A stretch of DNA of 64,000 nt from Natranaerobius thermophilus JW/NM-WN-LF (GTDB lineage: Bacteria; Bacillota; Natranaerobiia; Natranaerobiales; Natranaerobiaceae), in NCBI RefSeq assembly GCF_000020005.1, contig NC_010718.1, forward strand, positions 2,686,001 through 2,750,000, given 5' to 3'. The notes beneath the pieces were generated by a model. The model ran no database searches. It was not told where the DNA came from and saw only the letters and a program-made list of their open reading frames with translations. Shown piece after piece: positions 11,096 to 57,538 of this stretch (position 1 is its first letter; each line of letters starts with the position of its first letter). The position numbers were made by a program, and so were the translations under genes.

Positions 11096-11767
11096 TCAAT
11101 TATTTTCTATGACTTTTTGTAATTTTTTCATTTTCTGTTTAGCATTAATATTATTACTATCACAATATTCTTTCATCCAGGTCTTTTCAGCTTCATCATA
11201 AGGGCTTGTCCAAAACCTTCTTATAAAAGCCTTCACCTTTGATTCAATGTCAATATTCAAACATGATACCTCACAGACCAAATTAAAATGACTTAATAAG
11301 TTTTCAGCAGTTAATTTTCCATCCAAATAATCAATGAATAAAAGTTCATAAAAAGCCAGGGGAATAACATCCGATTCTGCTTCTCTCATTAATGTATAAT
11401 GTGGCCCTTTCTCTTTAATATCATCAGTGACTAAGCAAATACAACCTAGAATTTTTGCCAAAGAAATAGCATAAATTTCACCTAAATCACAATCGTCAAA
11501 AATAATTCTATAGTCTCGAACAAGATTGTCAAATAATTTAAACAACCCATTGTCACGAATATATTTATCATCTATCATTTCTATCCTACCTTGTTTACAA
11601 TCCTGATCGAATAAAGACAAAATTTCATCATCTGCATGTCGTTCTAATTCATGTGTTCTAATAAATTCATAAATAACAACATTTTTAAATCTTTTAAATA
11701 AAACACTCTGCATGTCAGCTTTGTATAAATGGATGATCACGTTTGTATCGAGTGACGCCTGCATCAT
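11096..11767 (-). CDS. PIN-like domain protein, putative RNase of an XRE-ImmA-PIN module
   Basis: The N-terminus SLDTNVIIHLYK carries the first PIN aspartate. DDCDLGEIYAISLA (~residue 90) and LVTDDIKEK (~110) supply further acidic residues for a metal-dependent RNase site. The C-terminal third is helical and unassigned. Its start (ATG 11767/11764, GGAGG upstream) overlaps the stop of the ImmA/IrrE gene, so the two are coupled. By family analogy it would be the toxin or effector, with XRE plus ImmA as control, but this is inferred. Confidence 0.65.
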   Translation of the reverse strand: MMQASLDTNVIIHLYKADMQSVLFKRFKNVVIYEFIRTHELERHADDEILSLFDQDCKQGRIEMIDDKYIRDNGLFKLFDNLVRDYRIIFDDCDLGEIYAISLAKILGCICLVTDDIKEKGPHYTLMREAESDVIPLAFYELLFIDYLDGKLTAENLLSHFNLVCEVSCLNIDIESKVKAFIRRFWTSPYDEAEKTWMKEYCDSNNINAKQKMKKLQKVIENN

Positions 11768-12582
11768 TCCATCCTCCCAATTAGATCATCTAGTTCTTCT
11801 TTTTCCTTTTCTTGTAGTTGTTCTTGTTCATCAACGAAAACTAGATCGTCTAAGTTTACTTTCACATAACTCAAAGCTTTTCTGGCGCTTTCCTCAGATA
11901 TGAGTTTATTATGATAATTAGTAATCACCCATTCTAAAAATTCATCAGGGATTTTAATTTTTTCAGCTGCTTTACACAAGTCACTATTCCCACTAATAGC
12001 GGTTAATAATCTGGTAGCCGTCTTTTCTGCTTTTTCCGAATATAATTTATTTAACAGTGACTCGTTTAGTATACCTAAAAATTTCAGTCTATATAAAACC
12101 ATGTCATAACTTACATTAAAAGTCGTTTGGATCCGTGCAATATCCCAACCAGTCCATAAGTGGGGAGGTTTATCATTAAGTACCAATTTCATAAATTTAT
12201 TGACCTTATCATCGGGCATCAAAAGACAGGCCGCAAAATAATTAGCTTCTGTTTCAGACTCATATCTTTCTTCTAAATCATTATCTTTTATCATCGTTAT
12301 CCCGTGCTCTGATAAGTGAAGTTTTTGATGTCCCAGTTCATGTGCAGCAGTGAAGATTTCTCGCGACAAAATACTTGAAGAATTTGTAAATATAATCTTA
12401 TCCGTATCCTTTACTAAAGAAAATCCGAGCAAAGCATATTTCCCAATGGGATATCTAATAACTTTAACTCCAAGTTTTTCTAATGCATCAAAAATATTTT
12501 CAAATCCATAATCTGTCACATTGCTTTCATTTCTTACATTGTCAACTAATTTTTCTATCTCAAGTCTTCTACTTTTGTCCAT
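11764..12582 (-). CDS. ImmA/IrrE family metallopeptidase
   Basis: The zinc-peptidase motif HELGHQKLH (HExxH, ~residue 82) lies after an N-terminal helical region. EANYFAACLLMP (~113) supplies the downstream Glu that is characteristic of the family. Such proteases cleave or derepress XRE-type regulators; the partner here is the XRE protein at 12569-12925, which it overlaps. ATG 12582 is about 9 nt after AGAGG; in-frame starts at 12588 and 12591 sit too close to it. Confidence 0.85.
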   Translation of the reverse strand: MDKSRRLEIEKLVDNVRNESNVTDYGFENIFDALEKLGVKVIRYPIGKYALLGFSLVKDTDKIIFTNSSSILSREIFTAAHELGHQKLHLSEHGITMIKDNDLEERYESETEANYFAACLLMPDDKVNKFMKLVLNDKPPHLWTGWDIARIQTTFNVSYDMVLYRLKFLGILNESLLNKLYSEKAEKTATRLLTAISGNSDLCKAAEKIKIPDEFLEWVITNYHNKLISEESARKALSYVKVNLDDLVFVDEQEQLQEKEKEELDDLIGRME

Positions 12583-12925
12583 TATCATCAACCTCTTTCA
12601 AACTGTTATACAACCTCCTGTGGGCATAAAAAGTATTGATCATGTCATTTATAAAATTAAATTGATCATCAGCATAATTAGCCCCATTCACTCTGTACAT
12701 AGGCTGACTATTTTCCTCGTCTTCAATAACACTAGTTATTTCACGGGGAGAAATTTGTAAGATCCGCGCTATATCTAATATATTAGAATAAGATATATCT
12801 ACTAAACCTTTCTCAATTCTAGCAATTTTCTGCCTAGAACAGTTCATTTTGAACGCAATCTCTTCTTGAGTTTTACCCGCTGACTCTCGCAAGACTCTAA
12901 TTTGCTCACCTAGTATTCCATTCAA
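12569..12925 (-). CDS. XRE-family helix-turn-helix regulator
   Basis: A classic HTH lies at residues ~6-60 (IRVLRESAGKTQEEIAF, then SRQKIARIEKG), followed by a short acidic linker. TTG 12925 is 8 nt behind AAGGAGG; the upstream GTG at 12934 would overlap that site. It is first in a three-gene coupled operon with ImmA/IrrE and PIN proteins and probably represses the promoter at 12948-12975. Confidence 0.85.
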   Translation of the reverse strand: MNGILGEQIRVLRESAGKTQEEIAFKMNCSRQKIARIEKGLVDISYSNILDIARILQISPREITSVIEDEENSQPMYRVNGANYADDQFNFINDMINTFYAHRRLYNSLKEVDDNGQK

Positions 12926-12947
12926 TAGACCCACCTCCTTTGACTAT

Positions 12948-17845: not shown

Positions 17846-18754
17846 TCATTCAATCATATCGTCCTTCTTAGTTAACCTATACATTGAAAATCCTAAATAC
17901 GAAAATAGCACTACTAATTCACTTATAAATAACGCTATCAATAATATTCTAATAGCCGAATCATCATAATATCCTATCGGATATGGTAATAAGAAACTTG
18001 GAATTATTATCCCAACTATGCAAGCGTATATAAGTACTGCCAGTCCACCCCATAATCCAGAAATTTTTCCATAACCCATTAGCATATCTTGTTCTGCATT
18101 CATTAATGCTTCTAGTACTTTAATGTCTTCTTCAAGTTGTTTCACTTTTCGAACATTGGCATTATATTCTTGAGAGGAAAGTATCGGCTTGAAATAACCA
18201 ATGTCAGAAATAGAACTAAGGACGTCAACATTTAAAATGCCCGGTTGTTTTTGGGGTATATGACGTAAAATTATATCATATATTAACTCATACCAGCTTC
18301 TGTCTCTATCTTCATCAATTTTGATTTTATTATCACGAATAAACTCATTAAAATCAGTTGGAAGTACATAATTGTCATCTGTAGACTTAATTTTATCCTT
18401 AATGAATTGAGAGATTTCTAAAATTCTATCTATGGTAGATTCAATCACGTCTCTATTTAAATTAATACTCTGCTCTTCTTCTAAAATGTCCTCCAACGAT
18501 TTTTTGTTGAAAAGTATATCTTCTGCATAATGTTGAACAAAATCATCAATATCCTCTTCTTCCACTACCTGCTTTGCAGATTCAAGCATCTCTTTTTTTA
18601 TATTTAATTCTTTATCAATTTCCCTTATTTTCTTCTGAATTGAATTCTTTTCACCGGATAATGTAATAACCCTGCTTACCAAGAATCCGCCAATAATCGC
18701 AACTAATGCAGCAGTCGAAGTTATTATTGTTGAGATTAGTAAACTTAAATCCAA
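17846..18754 (-). CDS. Coiled-coil membrane protein of unknown function
   Basis: The start is TTG 18754 behind GAGGTGAT; upstream in-frame codons lack a ribosome binding site. One helix (~5-25) is followed by a long coiled coil (residues ~30-60), a central helical domain, a second short coiled coil, then two C-terminal helices (~235-290). The topology puts the coiled coils in the cytoplasm. No catalytic motif is visible. Paired with the gene at 16974. Confidence 0.55.
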   Translation of the reverse strand: MDLSLLISTIITSTAALVAIIGGFLVSRVITLSGEKNSIQKKIREIDKELNIKKEMLESAKQVVEEEDIDDFVQHYAEDILFNKKSLEDILEEEQSINLNRDVIESTIDRILEISQFIKDKIKSTDDNYVLPTDFNEFIRDNKIKIDEDRDRSWYELIYDIILRHIPQKQPGILNVDVLSSISDIGYFKPILSSQEYNANVRKVKQLEEDIKVLEALMNAEQDMLMGYGKISGLWGGLAVLIYACIVGIIIPSFLLPYPIGYYDDSAIRILLIALFISELVVLFSYLGFSMYRLTKKDDMIE

Positions 18755-18859
18755 TGATATCACCTCTGAATACTCACTTACCCGGGCCAATATGATTTTC
18801 CATCGTCACCCATTACTCTCCCACATAACCACCATACCTATAGTAGCTTAACACGATAT

Positions 18860-18897
18860 CATTCAATTTTGCCATATACTAAATTGAATGGTATAAT
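18860..18897 (+). promoter_or_regulatory. Promoter with overlapping perfect 10-bp inverted repeat
   Basis: TTGCCA (18869-18874) and TATAAT (18892-18897) are spaced 17 nt. The -35 box and spacer are covered by the inverted repeat CATTCAATTT (18860-18869) / AAATTGAATG (18881-18890), a likely repressor site. It drives the small transcript with the 42-aa peptide. Confidence 0.65.
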
Positions 18898-18904
18898 GTA
18901 TTTG

Positions 18905-19185
18905 CTCCGCCCCGGCGCATGGCAACATGCGTACTCTTACTAGGGTTGGGCAGCCCGACGGGAGTTGGTACTGTCTTTTTGTAACTTGACGGTACTAGTA
19001 AGAGTTGTTGAGGTGGGGATGCGTATGAATAAATCAATAATTGCTAAGATTTCTATGTTGATTATATTATTGTTTTTTAATAGTACCTTCTCCACCTTCG
19101 ACATGAGGGTAATCACTTCTCACAGTGCTTATTCCTTAGTTGCAAATTACTAACCCAGCCAAATTAAATTCTTTGGTTTTTTTCA
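18905..19185 (+). ncRNA. Predicted ~280-nt structured transcript carrying a small peptide gene
   Basis: Downstream of the promoter come CGCATG/CATGCG (18918-18933), an 11-bp perfect repeat ACTCTTACTAG (18935-18945) / CTAGTAAGAGT (~19004-19014), and two inner hairpins GTTGGG/CCCGAC and GTACTGTC/GACGGTAC. The last can form only if the long stem opens. The ribosome binding site AGGTGG lies next to the long stem. CCAAA/TTTGG followed by seven T near 19161-19183 looks like the terminator. I recognise no known RNA family. Confidence 0.45.
19025..19153 (+). CDS. 42-aa hydrophobic peptide
   Basis: ATG 19025 is 8 nt after AGGTGG. The peptide starts MNKSIIAKISMLIILLFFNS, a basic end followed by a ~14-residue hydrophobic run, then a polar tail ending SLVANY. 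It could be a secreted signal peptide precursor or a membrane-active (type I toxin-like) peptide; there is no cysteine. The long 5' leader with mutually exclusive stems suggests controlled translation. Family not recognised. Confidence 0.45.
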   Translation: MNKSIIAKISMLIILLFFNSTFSTFDMRVITSHSAYSLVANY

Positions 19186-19258
19186 AGCAAATAATTCTTT
19201 TTTATTGGACTTTCATTTACTTCCCAAGCTATAGCATAATTGTACTTCTTTAATAACT

Positions 19259-20251
19259 TTAGTCCCAATAAGGGTATTGTCTAATTAAATACCCATTGTT
19301 ATCCTGTTTATTTTTCTTCAAACTTCCAATTTCTTCATACAATGAATTTTTCATTTTCCCCATCATTTTAACCATTTTATCATTTCTGCCTTTCGGATTT
19401 CCTTCTGACAGATATAGTTGAATAATCCAATCAAGTTTATCCGGTTCACTGTTTTTATATTTATCAATTAGGTAATCAAAAATTTCAGCCTGTAAGTCTA
19501 AAGCATCATATACTAATTCATAATAACTTTTTTCAACGTGAAATGTTTCGAAGTTCTCACCTTGAACAGTCGCAATACCTTCAAATACTTTTGTAAATGC
19601 AAAAACAGAAAACAAAACAGGTTCTAAAAGGAGATTTTGTTTATCATAGATGAAATGTGTACCATTAAAATAATGCTTCATCGTTCCAAAATTACTGTGT
19701 GTAAATTCACATAAATACGAGTAAAAATAATAATAGTAGTTTTCATCTTTACCCTGCTTTACTTTACTAGGTCCTTTCCTCTCTGCGACTAAGTTACTGT
19801 TTTGATCTATTACTTTATTTCTTTTCAGTGAAAAGTAGTCTGTAATCACCCCTATAGGGCTTCTTATGAATTCTTCTATCAGTTCTTCTCTATTTTGATC
19901 GTCATCAATTTTATCTCTAAAATATCTACTAAATAAATGGCCTTCAAAGATACTTCTTACCAGCATCATTATATCTTCATCAAAATGATAATCTTGCTCA
20001 TTCAATAGTGCTCTGATTGCATGTAGTGTTTTTGTACTTTTAGAAAACACGAAGTAATCAAAGTCATTAAACAGTTTAGCACTATATAATAATTCAGAAG
20101 GGATATTGTTATCGGTATAAACAAATGTCATTATATCTAATAATCCATCAGGAACGCTGTATTTTTCACAAAACTTTCGTGATTTATCTAAGTATCTATT
20201 CATAATCTTTCTTAGTTTACCTCTATATTCCAATTCTTGATTTCGATCCAT
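19259..20251 (-). CDS. Hypothetical helical protein, DUF5677-like
   Basis: The 330-aa soluble protein is mostly alpha-helical. The stretch IMMLVRSIFEGHLFSRYF (~residue 95) and the later YLCEFTHSNFG resemble the conserved helices of DUF5677-type proteins, where the motif is ..R.L.E......Y.... with a later H. I cannot assign a reaction. The start ATG 20251 follows AGGGAGAG. It is a single gene in the accessory island. Confidence 0.45.
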   Translation of the reverse strand: MDRNQELEYRGKLRKIMNRYLDKSRKFCEKYSVPDGLLDIMTFVYTDNNIPSELLYSAKLFNDFDYFVFSKSTKTLHAIRALLNEQDYHFDEDIMMLVRSIFEGHLFSRYFRDKIDDDQNREELIEEFIRSPIGVITDYFSLKRNKVIDQNSNLVAERKGPSKVKQGKDENYYYYFYSYLCEFTHSNFGTMKHYFNGTHFIYDKQNLLLEPVLFSVFAFTKVFEGIATVQGENFETFHVEKSYYELVYDALDLQAEIFDYLIDKYKNSEPDKLDWIIQLYLSEGNPKGRNDKMVKMMGKMKNSLYEEIGSLKKNKQDNNGYLIRQYPYWD

Positions 20252-20722: not shown

Positions 20723-20875
20723 TTACTCACTTCCCCAAATTTCCAAACCTTTAACAGTTCCGGATTTATTTTTCAACCAAATTATAGCACCATTCATGTT
20801 GCACCAATCAATATGCTCCTTTAAAGGCAAGTAGGAGCTACTCCAAATTTTAGAACCACTACTATAACCTATTGG
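20723..20875 (-). pseudogene. Unassigned C-terminal gene fragment
   Basis: An open stretch without a start reads ..SSGSKIWSSSYLPLKEH, then IDWCNMNGAIIWLKNKSG, ending ..LEIWGSE and TAA. It looks like the last ~48 residues of a protein but I cannot name it. It directly abuts the AbiH remnant. Confidence 0.3.
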
Positions 20876-21257
20876 ATATCTATCCCATCCTTCAACGCCT
20901 TACAAAAAACATGCCCTGGATAATACAATCTTCCCGAACTAAGATCAATGAGTTGACTAACATCGGATCCGGTTGAAATATTCTTCTCATTAATACCCAT
21001 CATAGTTACAAATTTTTTGATCCTGTCTTGATCCCCATCACTGTGCCAGCTGATTTTCCAAAGTATTTCCCTCGAATCTTTATTAGCATCGATTACCTTC
21101 CTAAAGTATGGATGATCCACTGGAGATAAAGAATGGCCAATCACTACTATCTCTTTTAAATCTTTAAGTGAATCAAAAAATGTTTCGTTATCAGCTATGA
21201 TTTCTTTAGTTTTCTTGGCGGAATCAGTAAAATATCCTTCAATCTTTCCGAAAGCTT
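20869..21257 (-). pseudogene. Remnant of an AbiH-type abortive infection gene
   Basis: The frame contains VVIGHSLSPVDHPYFRKV, matching the conserved GHSLxxVDxPYF block near the C-terminus of AbiH proteins, followed by ILWKISWHSDGDQDRIKKF. Upstream it continues ..FGKIEGYFTDSAKKTKEI.. without a start, and the N-terminal two thirds are absent. The stop is at 20869. Fragmentary bases up to about 21480 show only scattered short frames. Confidence 0.6.
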
Positions 21258-24739: not shown

Positions 24740-25204
24740 TCAAAATGACCAACGTTGATGTCTGATCATTTCTAAAACATTAACACATTCAATATTATAA
24801 AAGTCACATATATTTGGAATTTTTAACTGCTTTGCATTTGGCCCAACTCTTTTTTCACCTGTAATCACATATGCTTCACAATTATAAGCAAGAGCAACAA
24901 CATACGGATCTGCCCAGACACCAGTATAGCTTGTCTCAGGTAAAAATTTTGGATGTCTATTAACTATATCCGAAACTATAATTTGGATATCATAGTCAGA
25001 AGAAATAAACATAGACTTCCTATTTTTTGCCCACTCATATAAATCATCTCCACCTCTATCAAGCTCATGTAATACTTCTTCTGGTGCAAATAAAGTATTA
25101 TTATCAATTAATATATCAATATTTTCCCATAAACTAGCAAATACATCCGGTGGATAATCTCTGCGCCAACAATGAATTAAAGAGCTTGTATCTATACAAT
25201 ACAA
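24740..25204 (-). CDS. DUF4411 PIN-like protein, putative toxin
   Basis: Three PIN-type acidic blocks are visible: CIDTSSLIHCW at the start, WADPYVVALAYN (~100) and YVITGEKR (~115). The pattern YPPDVFASLW is typical of DUF4411. A 154-aa single-domain RNase-like fold is expected. TTG 25204 follows GGGAGGGAAA, about 25 nt after the upstream HTH-ImmA gene, forming a two-gene toxin-antitoxin-like operon. Toxicity is inferred from family context. Confidence 0.75.
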   Translation of the reverse strand: MYCIDTSSLIHCWRRDYPPDVFASLWENIDILIDNNTLFAPEEVLHELDRGGDDLYEWAKNRKSMFISSDYDIQIIVSDIVNRHPKFLPETSYTGVWADPYVVALAYNCEAYVITGEKRVGPNAKQLKIPNICDFYNIECVNVLEMIRHQRWSF

Positions 25205-25228
25205 GAAGTTTCCCTCCCAAACAGGCAG

Positions 25229-26365
25229 TTATTTATATAATTGGGATTCTACTTTCGGTAAATGGTTAATTTTAAAGTTCCCCAAATAATTGGATACATC
25301 TCTAAGGCTTATAATATCATCACGATAAGCAGAAATTATCAGGTCAGTATATAGCTTTCCATTATCTCTAACAACTTTTTTTGCAGGTAGCAAAAAACCT
25401 TGACTTTTAGATTTTTTATAAGTTTCAAGATATTCTTCTCGTTTTTTTTGATAAAAGTTTTTGGTTATTTTATTTAAAATCAATAATCTCCTCAATATTA
25501 CTTCAACACTAACCATATAACGATTGGCTAAATATTCTAACTGAAATGGATCTCTATAATCGGTAATACTGTCTAAATCATTTTTTAATACTTGTTTAGG
25601 AACAAGTATTTCTCCTGCAACCTTATTGCAAAATACTTCAAAATCATTACTATCATTATCATCTAAATCACAAATCCCACTTTGACCAATCACTATGTGA
25701 ACTAATTCATGCATTAAAGTGAAAATTCTCCCACGTGGGGAATCTTTACTATTAATTAAAATAATTGGTAAAAATTGTTCACTTATAGAAAGTCCCCTCA
25801 TTTCAGCTAAATCTAATTCCCCAGTTTGAAATATCAAAATATTTTGCTTTTCAAGTAGATCTATCCAGGAATTCAAAGCAGTGTAATGATCTTTCCAAGA
25901 AAATTGATCATCTATAGAAATACCTAACTGTTCTCTTATTTTCAAAGCTAATTCAGTAGTAGAAATCTTGCTGTCAATTTCAAATTTAAATTCAGGGCAA
26001 GATTTACCTAAATAATGTAAAAGTTCAATATAAGTTTCTCGCCTTTCAAAAGCACGTCTGATTTGTAAAGACATCTGAGGCGTTCTTTCTAAATTTTCAT
26101 CTGGTAATTGTCTATAGTCAGGTAAATCTGGTTTAGTAGCATCAGGAGCATCCTTTAAATAAAAGAATGCAGAAGGTCGCTTGTATAATTTAGCAATTAA
26201 TCTTAATTGCCTTAATGTAGGCATTTTCTGACCAGCTTCCCACTGAATTAATTTTTGAGAATTTATCCCAATCTTTCTTGCAGCTTCATCAATATCATAA
26301 TTCATTTCTTCTCTAGCCCATTTAAGAATTTCTGGATTAATATAAGCTTTATTTTTACTGGCCAT
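25229..26365 (-). CDS. Fused XRE helix-turn-helix and ImmA/IrrE peptidase
   Basis: Residues ~8-62 form an HTH (MNYDIDEAARKIGINSQKLI, then QWEAGQKMPTLRQL). Residues ~190-290 form the peptidase with HELVHIVIG (HExxH, ~218) and FCNKVAGEILVP supplying the later Glu/Asn region. Length (378 aa) suits the COG2856-type antitoxin fusion. It is coupled to the DUF4411 gene downstream. Compared with the operon at 11096-12925, regulator and protease are fused here. Confidence 0.85.
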   Translation of the reverse strand: MASKNKAYINPEILKWAREEMNYDIDEAARKIGINSQKLIQWEAGQKMPTLRQLRLIAKLYKRPSAFFYLKDAPDATKPDLPDYRQLPDENLERTPQMSLQIRRAFERRETYIELLHYLGKSCPEFKFEIDSKISTTELALKIREQLGISIDDQFSWKDHYTALNSWIDLLEKQNILIFQTGELDLAEMRGLSISEQFLPIILINSKDSPRGRIFTLMHELVHIVIGQSGICDLDDNDSNDFEVFCNKVAGEILVPKQVLKNDLDSITDYRDPFQLEYLANRYMVSVEVILRRLLILNKITKNFYQKKREEYLETYKKSKSQGFLLPAKKVVRDNGKLYTDLIISAYRDDIISLRDVSNYLGNFKINHLPKVESQLYK

Positions 26366-55437: not shown

Positions 55438-57538
55438 ATCGAGTAGGTAGAAGCCACAGTAATTAGCTGTGGCTTCGTTCCTCTCACAGAACCGTGCTTA
55501 CGGGCCACGTACACGGCTCCTAGTAGACCTCGATCACTTTCTAAAGTGATGCAAAATACCAACTTGATAGGTACTAATATTAATTAGACCTATCTCGTCA
55601 AACCACTTATTGGGTAGTGCTAAACTTATGAGAGGACTTGATGAGTTTCTCCATTTATTCATGGAGATTTTCTCAAATTCCCCTTTGTAGCCTTTTCTGC
55701 GAAGAGTTTTGTGTAGTTGTTTCCAACTTTTCCATTCTCGCATTTTCTTCATCCTAAGTCTTCTTCTAATCCATTTCATTAAGTTCTCAAATTGTTTCTT
55801 ACAATTGGCTATTCGGAAGTAATTTGCCCATCCTCTTAATACTGGATTTAGCTCTTTTATGATTTCGGATAGATTTCTACCATGATTTCTTGGTGTAAGA
55901 GTTCTGACTTTTTCTTTGAATTTCTGTATCTTTTCAGGCTGGATGGATATGTTTTGACTCCTTATGATAACTCCTAGGTAGGGAACACCTTTGCGGTCAT
56001 TTGTTATGTGAGTTTTCTCTTTATTAACTGTTAGTTTTAATTCGTCTTCTAATATTTCAGTAGCTATATCTTTATATCTTTTCGCTTGTCTTGGTGTGTA
56101 GGCGAATATTAAAATATCATCGGCATATCTTACTATTCGGATATTGCGACTCTTCATTTCTTTATCAAATCTGTCTAGGTAAATGTTGGTTAGTAGTGGT
56201 GAAATCACTCCACCTTGAGGGCTCCCTATTTCTGTGTCTTCTATGGCTCCATCTTCCATTACTCCGGACTTCAAAAATTTCTTTATTAATTTGAGAACAC
56301 TTCCATCACTAACTTTCTTGGCTACTTCTTCGATAATCAACTCATGGTTTAATTTATCAAAGCATTTAGATAGGTCCATATCTACTACATGTCTTAGATT
56401 GTATTTATTAATGAACTGTTCTGATTTAGCTATTGCTTTGTGACATGAGCGATTAGGCCTGTATCCGTAGCTTGACGGGTGGAAGTCTGGATCAAAAATC
56501 GGTTGAAGTATATTTAACGTTGCTTGTTGGACTACCCTGTCTTTTACGGTTGGAATCCCTAATGGGCGAGTACTTCCATCTGGTTTGGGTATCTTAACTC
56601 GCCTCACAGGTTGTGGTTTGTATGCGCCAATTTTAAGGTCATGATGAAGGGTTTCCAGATTTTCTTCTAGGTTGGAGCCATAAGCCTCCACGGTTACCTG
56701 GTCTATGCCGGGTTTACCTTTGTTAGCTCTGACCCTGCGGTAGGCGTCTTCTAGATTGTTTTTGGAATAAATCTTGTCTATTAAACTGTACCATTTCTTC
56801 ATCAATTGCACCTTCTTTCGCTGTGTGCCTTCCCTCTTTCTACACTTTTAGTTGTGGTTTCTTTGAACGTGCTTAACGGTGTCTCTAGCTCTTTGGCAAT
56901 CTTACCTATCAGGGTACGCTCTACTTCCACTAGGCGGACGGTAAAGCAAGTAAGCTCGTCACCACCTGACTTTCCGTTCCCTTTAGCATTTCAGCTTCAG
57001 TTTTCTTCCTACCTAAAGTGTCTACTCGAGTTCTTGCTACACTCTTTGGTCTACTTTCACCCCTTCACACTACATAATTCCCTTTCGGTCATTATGCACC
57101 ACTACAACCAGGTGTAGTGTCCTTTCGGTTTTATCCTCCAGACTGTTACCAGCTTTCTTTGGCCGAAAGTTCTTCACTACTACGGGTTCATCTGCCTCCT
57201 GCACTGCTTTAGTTAAAACTCATGTTTCCACTTGTCTTAACTTTACTTGTCGTCACAAGACAATACAGGTATCTCCCCGGTTAAGTCTGCTTGCCTGAAT
57301 TTGAACGCATCCGTCCTAACCTTTTAGGTTATCCAGCTTTCGGGCTTTCCCATAATTTGCAAGGTTACCCACCTAAAAGGCCATCCTCGGTTTGTTCTCA
57401 CTATGTTCCAAATTCCCCCTTCAGCTTCCTTCAGACTCCACCGTCACCGGTGACGCCCTTGCCTTATGGTTGTCTTCCTGCTGGTTAGGTGACAGGGTTT
57501 CTTTCAACCCATCGGCGCGGCAGGCATGCCGGGCAAAC
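55438..57538 (-). mobile_element. Group II intron with maturase ORF
   Basis: On minus the intron begins near 57538 (GTTTG..) and ends near 55438 (..CTACTCGAT). Domain V is at 55519-55489 (GAGCCGTG...CACGGTTC, with an AGC triad) and domain VI follows (GAAGCCACAG/CTGTGGCTTC stem, 55475-55451). About 0.7 kb of structured RNA (domains I-III) precedes the maturase ORF, which lies in domain IV. It inserted between a terminator-like hairpin (57541-57572) and the ComK-like gene. Exact ends are estimates. Confidence 0.85.
55534..56811 (-). CDS. ltrA: Group II intron reverse transcriptase/maturase
   Basis: The protein has all RT blocks: RRVKIPKPDGSTRPLGIPTV (RT1-2), YGYRPNRSCHKAI (RT3), DMDLSKCFDKLNH, GSPQGGVISPLLTNIYLD, and the catalytic RYADDILIF (YADD). 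The X/maturase domain follows (ELNPVLRGWANYFRIANCKK, GIIM type). There is no HNH endonuclease domain. Length 425 aa is typical. The stop at 55534 lies just before domain V. Confidence 0.92.
   Translation of the reverse strand: MQLMKKWYSLIDKIYSKNNLEDAYRRVRANKGKPGIDQVTVEAYGSNLEENLETLHHDLKIGAYKPQPVRRVKIPKPDGSTRPLGIPTVKDRVVQQATLNILQPIFDPDFHPSSYGYRPNRSCHKAIAKSEQFINKYNLRHVVDMDLSKCFDKLNHELIIEEVAKKVSDGSVLKLIKKFLKSGVMEDGAIEDTEIGSPQGGVISPLLTNIYLDRFDKEMKSRNIRIVRYADDILIFAYTPRQAKRYKDIATEILEDELKLTVNKEKTHITNDRKGVPYLGVIIRSQNISIQPEKIQKFKEKVRTLTPRNHGRNLSEIIKELNPVLRGWANYFRIANCKKQFENLMKWIRRRLRMKKMREWKSWKQLHKTLRRKGYKGEFEKISMNKWRNSSSPLISLALPNKWFDEIGLINISTYQVGILHHFRK

What the first reader, a model, noticed from the sequence alone, without database searches (positions are those of the whole stretch)
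18860..19185. Operator-controlled, structured transcript encoding a 42-aa hydrophobic peptide
A near-consensus promoter (TTGCCA-17-TATAAT) is overlaid by a perfect 10-bp inverted repeat. The ~110-nt leader holds an 11-bp perfect stem that competes with an 8-bp hairpin and ends beside the ribosome binding site. The peptide has a basic start, a short membrane-spanning run and a polar tail, followed by a terminator. This is a complete small unit between membrane-protein genes in a defence island. It could be a type I-like toxin, a signalling peptide, or an RNA sensor.
Basis: partly seen in the sequence, partly recalled or inferred. Interest (0 to 1): 0.62.

Follow-up and report, generated by a model that had tools for sequence, protein, structure and literature searches.

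The report
Self-silenced mRNA for a tiny peptide
A short, apparently complete gene in a heat- and salt-loving bacterium has a very strong promoter and makes an RNA predicted to hide its own ribosome-binding site twice in succession, a layout resembling the guarded messages of bacterial membrane toxins, although no partner antitoxin and no relatives were found.

Summary
The unit at 18,851-19,185 is real. It has the only 11/12-consensus promoter with an extended -10 in the 64 kb, a 31-bp palindrome over it, and a GC-rich leader (54% against 34%) that is the most stable 120-nt fold of the window. A 42-codon ORF with a strong Shine-Dalgarno (SD) and a U-tract terminator follow. Two corrections: the 11-bp stem and 8-bp hairpin are nested and stacked, not competing; the right-hand neighbour is a DUF5677 protein, not evidently a membrane protein. 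New finding: the SD is predicted to be sequestered twice in sequence, first by the transcript's 5' end, then by six C-ending codons inside the ORF in a 14-bp helix (0/163 sampled genes reach so low an accessibility; 22/5000 synonymous recodings pair as well). This is the anti-SD layout of type I toxin mRNAs such as aapA3. It works like a type I toxin mRNA, but membership is not shown: no antisense RNA is evident, toxicity is untested, and no homologue was found in 398 genomes of the phylum, other collections, or Rfam. The structure therefore lacks covariation support. Riboswitch, secreted-peptide and non-coding RNA readings remain open.

The parts
18851..18899 (.). inverted repeat (10-bp perfect arms 18860-18869/18881-18890, 16/19 extended), candidate operator over the -35 and spacer
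18869..18897 (+). sigma-A-type promoter TTGCCA-17-TATAAT with extended TG; transcription start inferred at about G18904
   Evidence: start site inferred
18904..19020 (+). GC-rich structured 5' leader: P1, GNRA-capped P2, 11-bp P3 carrying hairpins P3a and P3b
18905..18911 (+). anti-SD 1 (CTCCGCC), pairs with GGTGGGG 19012-19018 in the nascent transcript
18915..18932 (+). P2 hairpin, up to 7 bp closed by a GCAA (GNRA) tetraloop
18933..19005 (+). P3, 11-bp perfect stem (18933-18943/18995-19005), enclosing P3a (about 18945-18959) and P3b (about 18968-18995)
19010..19018 (+). Shine-Dalgarno GAGGTGGGG
   Evidence: accessibility
19025..19153 (+). 42-aa ORF MNKSIIAKISMLIILLFFNSTFSTFDMRVITSHSAYSLVANY (in-frame ATG also at 19019)
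   Evidence: single helix predicted
19086..19102 (+). anti-SD 2 inside the ORF (within codons ACC TTC TCC ACC TTC GAC, six C-ending codons), about 14-bp pairing with the SD region
19158..19182 (+). intrinsic terminator (7-bp hairpin then T7)

Best explanation
An orphan mRNA for a small membrane-active peptide whose translation is kept off by its own RNA fold, working like a type I toxin mRNA. A strong promoter, probably held by a repressor dimer on the 31-bp palindrome (inferred), makes a ~282-nt monocistronic RNA. While RNA polymerase is still in the ORF, the 5' end (anti-SD 1) closes the leader and covers the SD. Once codons 21-26 emerge, anti-SD 2 replaces it in a 14-bp helix, leaving a finished transcript predicted to be nearly untranslatable (predicted from energies). 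Translation would need an event that opens P1 before anti-SD 2 is made, or processing or a trans factor (inferred). The 42-aa peptide, basic N-terminus plus hydrophobic run, would insert in or cross the membrane and be harmful when overproduced (inferred).
For: SD partner switches from the 5' end (about 0.8-0.87 paired, transcript ends 19022-19086) to the ORF (0.99-1.0 from 19102) at 37 and 53 C. SD:ORF duplex -21.5 kcal/mol: 22/5000 synonymous recodings and 52/5000 dinucleotide shuffles reach it; best of 42 window ORFs is -17.0. Final SD accessibility 0.005: 0/163 SD-bearing genes at or below 0.01, mean 0.42. Anti-SD 2 is a run of six C-ending codons, expected 0.0012 times per 42 codons. Promoter, palindrome, leader stability and terminator as. 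Published parallels: aapA3 has an upstream and an in-ORF anti-SD formed sequentially during transcription, and a non-translatable primary transcript is called a hallmark of type I loci (PMC6733600); dinQ pairs an operator-overlaid promoter and a ~330-nt transcript with a small toxic single-TM peptide (PMC3567139).
Against: No homologue of leader, peptide or either adjacent gene, so no covariation or selection test. No convincing antisense promoter; minus-strand hits are about 9/12, near chance. No antisense partner longer than 14 nt in the window. 8/163 ordinary genes have SD accessibility as low over all stages. Minimum-energy models ignore kinetics, tertiary contacts, ~3.5 M salt and translating ribosomes. 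The hydrophobic run is short, signal-peptide-like. Toxicity is unknown.
Confidence: 0.4

Rival explanations
1. A translational riboswitch or salt/temperature sensor. The leader is a junction aptamer (P2, P3 with P3a/P3b) closed by P1, which contains the SD; ligand or conditions set P1 and hence production of a small membrane protein.
For: P1 closes a multibranch, GNRA-capped, GC-rich fold and contains the SD; comparably stable windows of the sample include a tRNA and a guanidine-I riboswitch with its terminator.
Against: No Rfam match in the leader even at E <= 10; no second copy in its genome or in 398 genomes; the in-ORF anti-SD would lock the SD whatever the aptamer does; predicted SD pairing hardly differs between 37 and 53 C.
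Confidence: 0.2
2. A secreted small peptide (signal or bacteriocin-like): signal peptide MNKSIIAKISMLIILLFFNSTFS and a ~19-residue released tail, under a repressor.
For: Basic n-region, roughly 10-residue h-region, polar c-region with a plausible cleavage after FNSTFS (sequence; 11-residue hydropathy windows are highest from residue 5 to 9).
Against: No family match; no exporter, peptide receptor or modification gene recognised among the neighbours scanned; does not explain the double SD sequestration.
Confidence: 0.15
3. A structured non-coding RNA; the ORF is incidental, and the SD:ORF helix is just one of its helices.
For: Whole transcript folds at z -4.4; the C-ending codon run suggests RNA rather than coding selection; an SD that is almost never accessible.
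Against: A strong SD spaced correctly before ATG and 42 open codons with an N-terminal hydrophobic run ending just before the terminator; outside the anti-SD the codons are mostly the genome's usual AT-ending ones.
Confidence: 0.15
4. A decaying or chance sequence with no current function.
For: No relatives at all; lies among island genes that themselves lack relatives.
Against: Best promoter of the window, intact terminator and ORF, and exceptional stability at one site.
Confidence: 0.1

Closest known systems
aapA3/IsoA3 (Helicobacter pylori type I toxin-antitoxin)
   Same: Upstream anti-SD 1 and in-ORF anti-SD 2 that are mutually exclusive and form in order during transcription; small toxic peptide (PMC6733600).
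   Different: Here no third, 3'-end anti-SD was found; the in-ORF pairing is itself the final state; no antisense RNA found; no sequence similarity recognised.
dinQ/agrB and tisB/istR-1 (Escherichia coli SOS-controlled type I toxins)
   Same: Operator overlapping the promoter, structured mRNA, single-helix hydrophobic peptide, own terminator, ~300-nt RNA (PMC3567139; tisB details partly from memory).
   Different: The palindrome is not a GAAC-N4-GTTC LexA box; no antisense gene recognised; no sequence similarity recognised.
Translational-OFF riboswitch leaders
   Same: Closing stem P1 contains the SD beneath a junction fold.
   Different: No Rfam class matches; no second copy known.

Membership tests
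Type I toxin-antitoxin system | Antisense RNA antitoxin with its own promoter | tested here: inconclusive
   Minus-strand promoters only about 9/12; no complementary stretch longer than 14 nt elsewhere in the window; read-through from the DUF5677 gene possible but untested.
Type I toxin-antitoxin system | Non-translatable primary transcript with sequestered SD | tested here: met
   By prediction only.
Type I toxin-antitoxin system | Small (under 60 aa) hydrophobic, usually single-helix peptide | tested here: met
   42 aa, hydropathy, one predicted helix 3-41 (single-sequence model, so weak).
Type I toxin-antitoxin system | Peptide toxic when overproduced, relieved by the RNA | not testable with these tools
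   Needs expression.
aapA-type toxin family | Sequence homology of peptide or RNA | tested here: not met
   No Pfam, NCBIfam, PHROG or PADLOC match; no Rfam match in the leader. No direct alignment with AapA was made.
LexA-controlled (tisB/dinQ-like) toxins | LexA box in the promoter | tested here: not met
   No Gram-positive-type GAAC-N4-GTTC site within one mismatch at 18850-18900.
Known riboswitch classes | Match to a curated aptamer model | tested here: not met
Any structured RNA family | Covariation of paired positions across homologues | tested here: inconclusive
   No homologue found: weak CM hits L023-L026 were judged chance (L023 lies inside a rex-like gene).

The most novel reading that the evidence does not exclude
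A previously undescribed, lineage-restricted class of repressor-controlled type I-like toxin whose finished mRNA is locked by an anti-SD written inside its own coding sequence, so the decision to translate must be taken while the RNA is still being made.
Probability: 0.2. Interest if true: 0.65.

Novelty: new variant of a known kind. Interest (0 to 1): 0.42.

Why it matters
Type I toxins are hard to find because their peptides are short and share little sequence. Here the RNA design itself (successive anti-SDs, a codon run that serves pairing) points to one in a halophilic thermophile, and gives a test that needs no homologues. If the lock holds at 53 C and about 3.5 M Na+, it also shows such control at extremes.

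Tried and rejected
Rfam at gathering and at E <= 10: nothing in the unit but a chance TarA hit. BLASTN of the unit in 101 genomes: only matches of about 16-41 bases. Plasmid and phage collections: none. tblastn-confirmed scans of viral and GTDB contigs: none. Single-sequence covariance model in its own genome and 398 of the phylum: only itself plus marginal hits, rejected on alignment and context. Peptide hits L029-L035: those examined lie across from other genes or contain stops. A 17-base core pattern in viral contigs gave three loci without the structure. Using the neighbours to find syntenic copies failed because they are orphans too. LexA box: absent. Antisense or trans partner within the window: none.

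Full report
Setting. The window lies on a 3,165,557-bp contig of a 3.19-Mb, three-contig genome. Its size fits Natranaerobius thermophilus, an identification made from memory. The unit fills a 468-bp gap (18791-19258) between two minus-strand genes: a gene with hydrophobic segments at 17846-18790, whose start is probably near 18757 (GAGGTG...TTG), and a DUF5677 gene at 19259-20251. The unit itself runs on the plus strand.

What is there. The promoter TTGCCA-17-TATAAT with an extended -10 TG is the only one of that quality on either strand in 64 kb. A palindrome CATTCAATTT-N11-AAATTGAATG overlies the -35 and the spacer; its half-sites lie 21 bp apart, two helical turns, which suits a repressor dimer (inference). 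With 9-bp arms and a 9-15 bp gap it occurs once in the genome, so if it is an operator it is a private one, or its other sites are degenerate. Inverted repeats as good as this occur three times per 64 kb, so its place on the best promoter is suggestive rather than proof.

The leader. 18904-19020 is 54% GC in a 34% GC window. It forms the most stable 120-nt window of both strands (-50.0 kcal/mol), followed by windows within or next to the group II intron region. In 400 kb of the same genome only 8 of 26,520 windows reach -50; those inspected were a tRNA with terminator, a guanidine-I riboswitch with terminator, hairpins or long inverted repeats, and one probable coding stretch. The fold is P1 (18905-18911 with the SD), P2 with a GCAA tetraloop, and an 11-bp P3 that carries P3a and P3b. 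It stacks directly on P3 and does not compete with it.

The double lock. Folding growing transcripts shows the SD pairing with the 5' end as soon as the whole SD is made (about 0.8-0.87 at ends 19022-19086), then switching completely to ORF bases 19086-19102 once they appear (0.99-1.0), at both 37 and 53 C. The final helix is about 14 bp with one bulge. Controls: 22 of 5000 synonymous recodings and 52 of 5000 dinucleotide shuffles of the ORF pair as well, and the best of 42 other window ORFs reaches -17.0 against -21.5 kcal/mol. Among 163 SD-bearing genes of the genome none has a final SD accessibility at or below 0.01 (this unit 0.005; mean 0.42), although 8 are as low when the maximum over stages is taken. 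The pairing codons ACC TTC TCC ACC TTC GAC form a run of six C-ending codons; 3 such runs occur in 91,099 codons of longer ORFs, giving an expectation of 0.0012 in an ORF this short. These tests overlap and were chosen after seeing the fold, so they should not be multiplied together.

The peptide. MNKSIIAKISMLIILLFFNSTFSTFDMRVITSHSAYSLVANY has no family match and no credible homologue. A single-sequence model is one long helix, which is weak evidence for such a short hydrophobic chain. It could be a membrane helix or a signal peptide.

Conservation. Nothing related was found in 101 genomes by BLASTN, in 398 genomes of the phylum by covariance model and by protein search, in GTDB contigs and viral contigs through the longer reading frame, or in plasmid and phage records. 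The two adjacent genes also lack relatives in the phylum sample. Only one genome of its family and one of its order were available beside its own, so the absence says as much about sampling as about the unit. The covariance model came from one sequence and the large search used strict filters; it excludes close relatives only.

Interpretation. Anti-SD pairing that forms in order, first upstream and then inside the ORF, is the arrangement supported by genetics for aapA3, and a non-translatable primary transcript is called a major hallmark of type I loci there (PMC6733600). An operator over the promoter and a ~330-nt RNA for a small membrane peptide recall dinQ, described as similar to tisB (PMC3567139). 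So it works like a type I toxin mRNA. [quoted passage not shown] Shown: sequence elements and their rarity. Predicted: the folds and the order of pairing. Inferred: repression at the palindrome, the trigger, membrane action and toxicity.

Unresolved. What releases the lock is not apparent. In aapA3 3'-end trimming activates the mRNA (PMC6733600); here trimming away anti-SD 2 would remove part of the ORF. A release acting on P1 during transcription, with the first ribosome then holding anti-SD 2 open, is the simplest proposal and makes a clear prediction for probing of nested transcripts.

Noticed in passing
L059:16444-16546 (minus strand), genome contig C2 about 3,016,444-3,016,546: Guanidine-I riboswitch just below the Rfam gathering score (61.1 against 63), followed by a long terminator-like hairpin.
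   Followed up: partly
window 55438-57453 (minus): Group II intron (Rfam RF02001 and RF00029); further group II D1-D4 matches in L049 and L059.
   Followed up: no
window 20869-21144 (minus): C-terminal fragment resembling AbiH, probably a truncated abortive-infection gene.
   Followed up: no
window 11096-12934 (minus): HTH + IrrE/M78 peptidase pair resembling PADLOC PDC-M69A/B (also capH/capP-like), followed by a 223-aa ORF without a family.
   Followed up: partly
window 24740-26365 (minus): HTH-IrrE/M78 protein next to a DUF4411 protein, a probable toxin-antitoxin-like pair.
   Followed up: no
window 19019 and 19025: Two in-frame ATGs six bases apart (MRMNKS... or MNKS...); the upstream one adjoins the SD-containing strand of P1.
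   Followed up: no
window 18927-18933 and 19019-19025: The 3' arm of P2 (ATGCGTA) is repeated at the start codon (ATGCGTA), so the P2 5' arm could alternatively pair with the start region.
   Followed up: no
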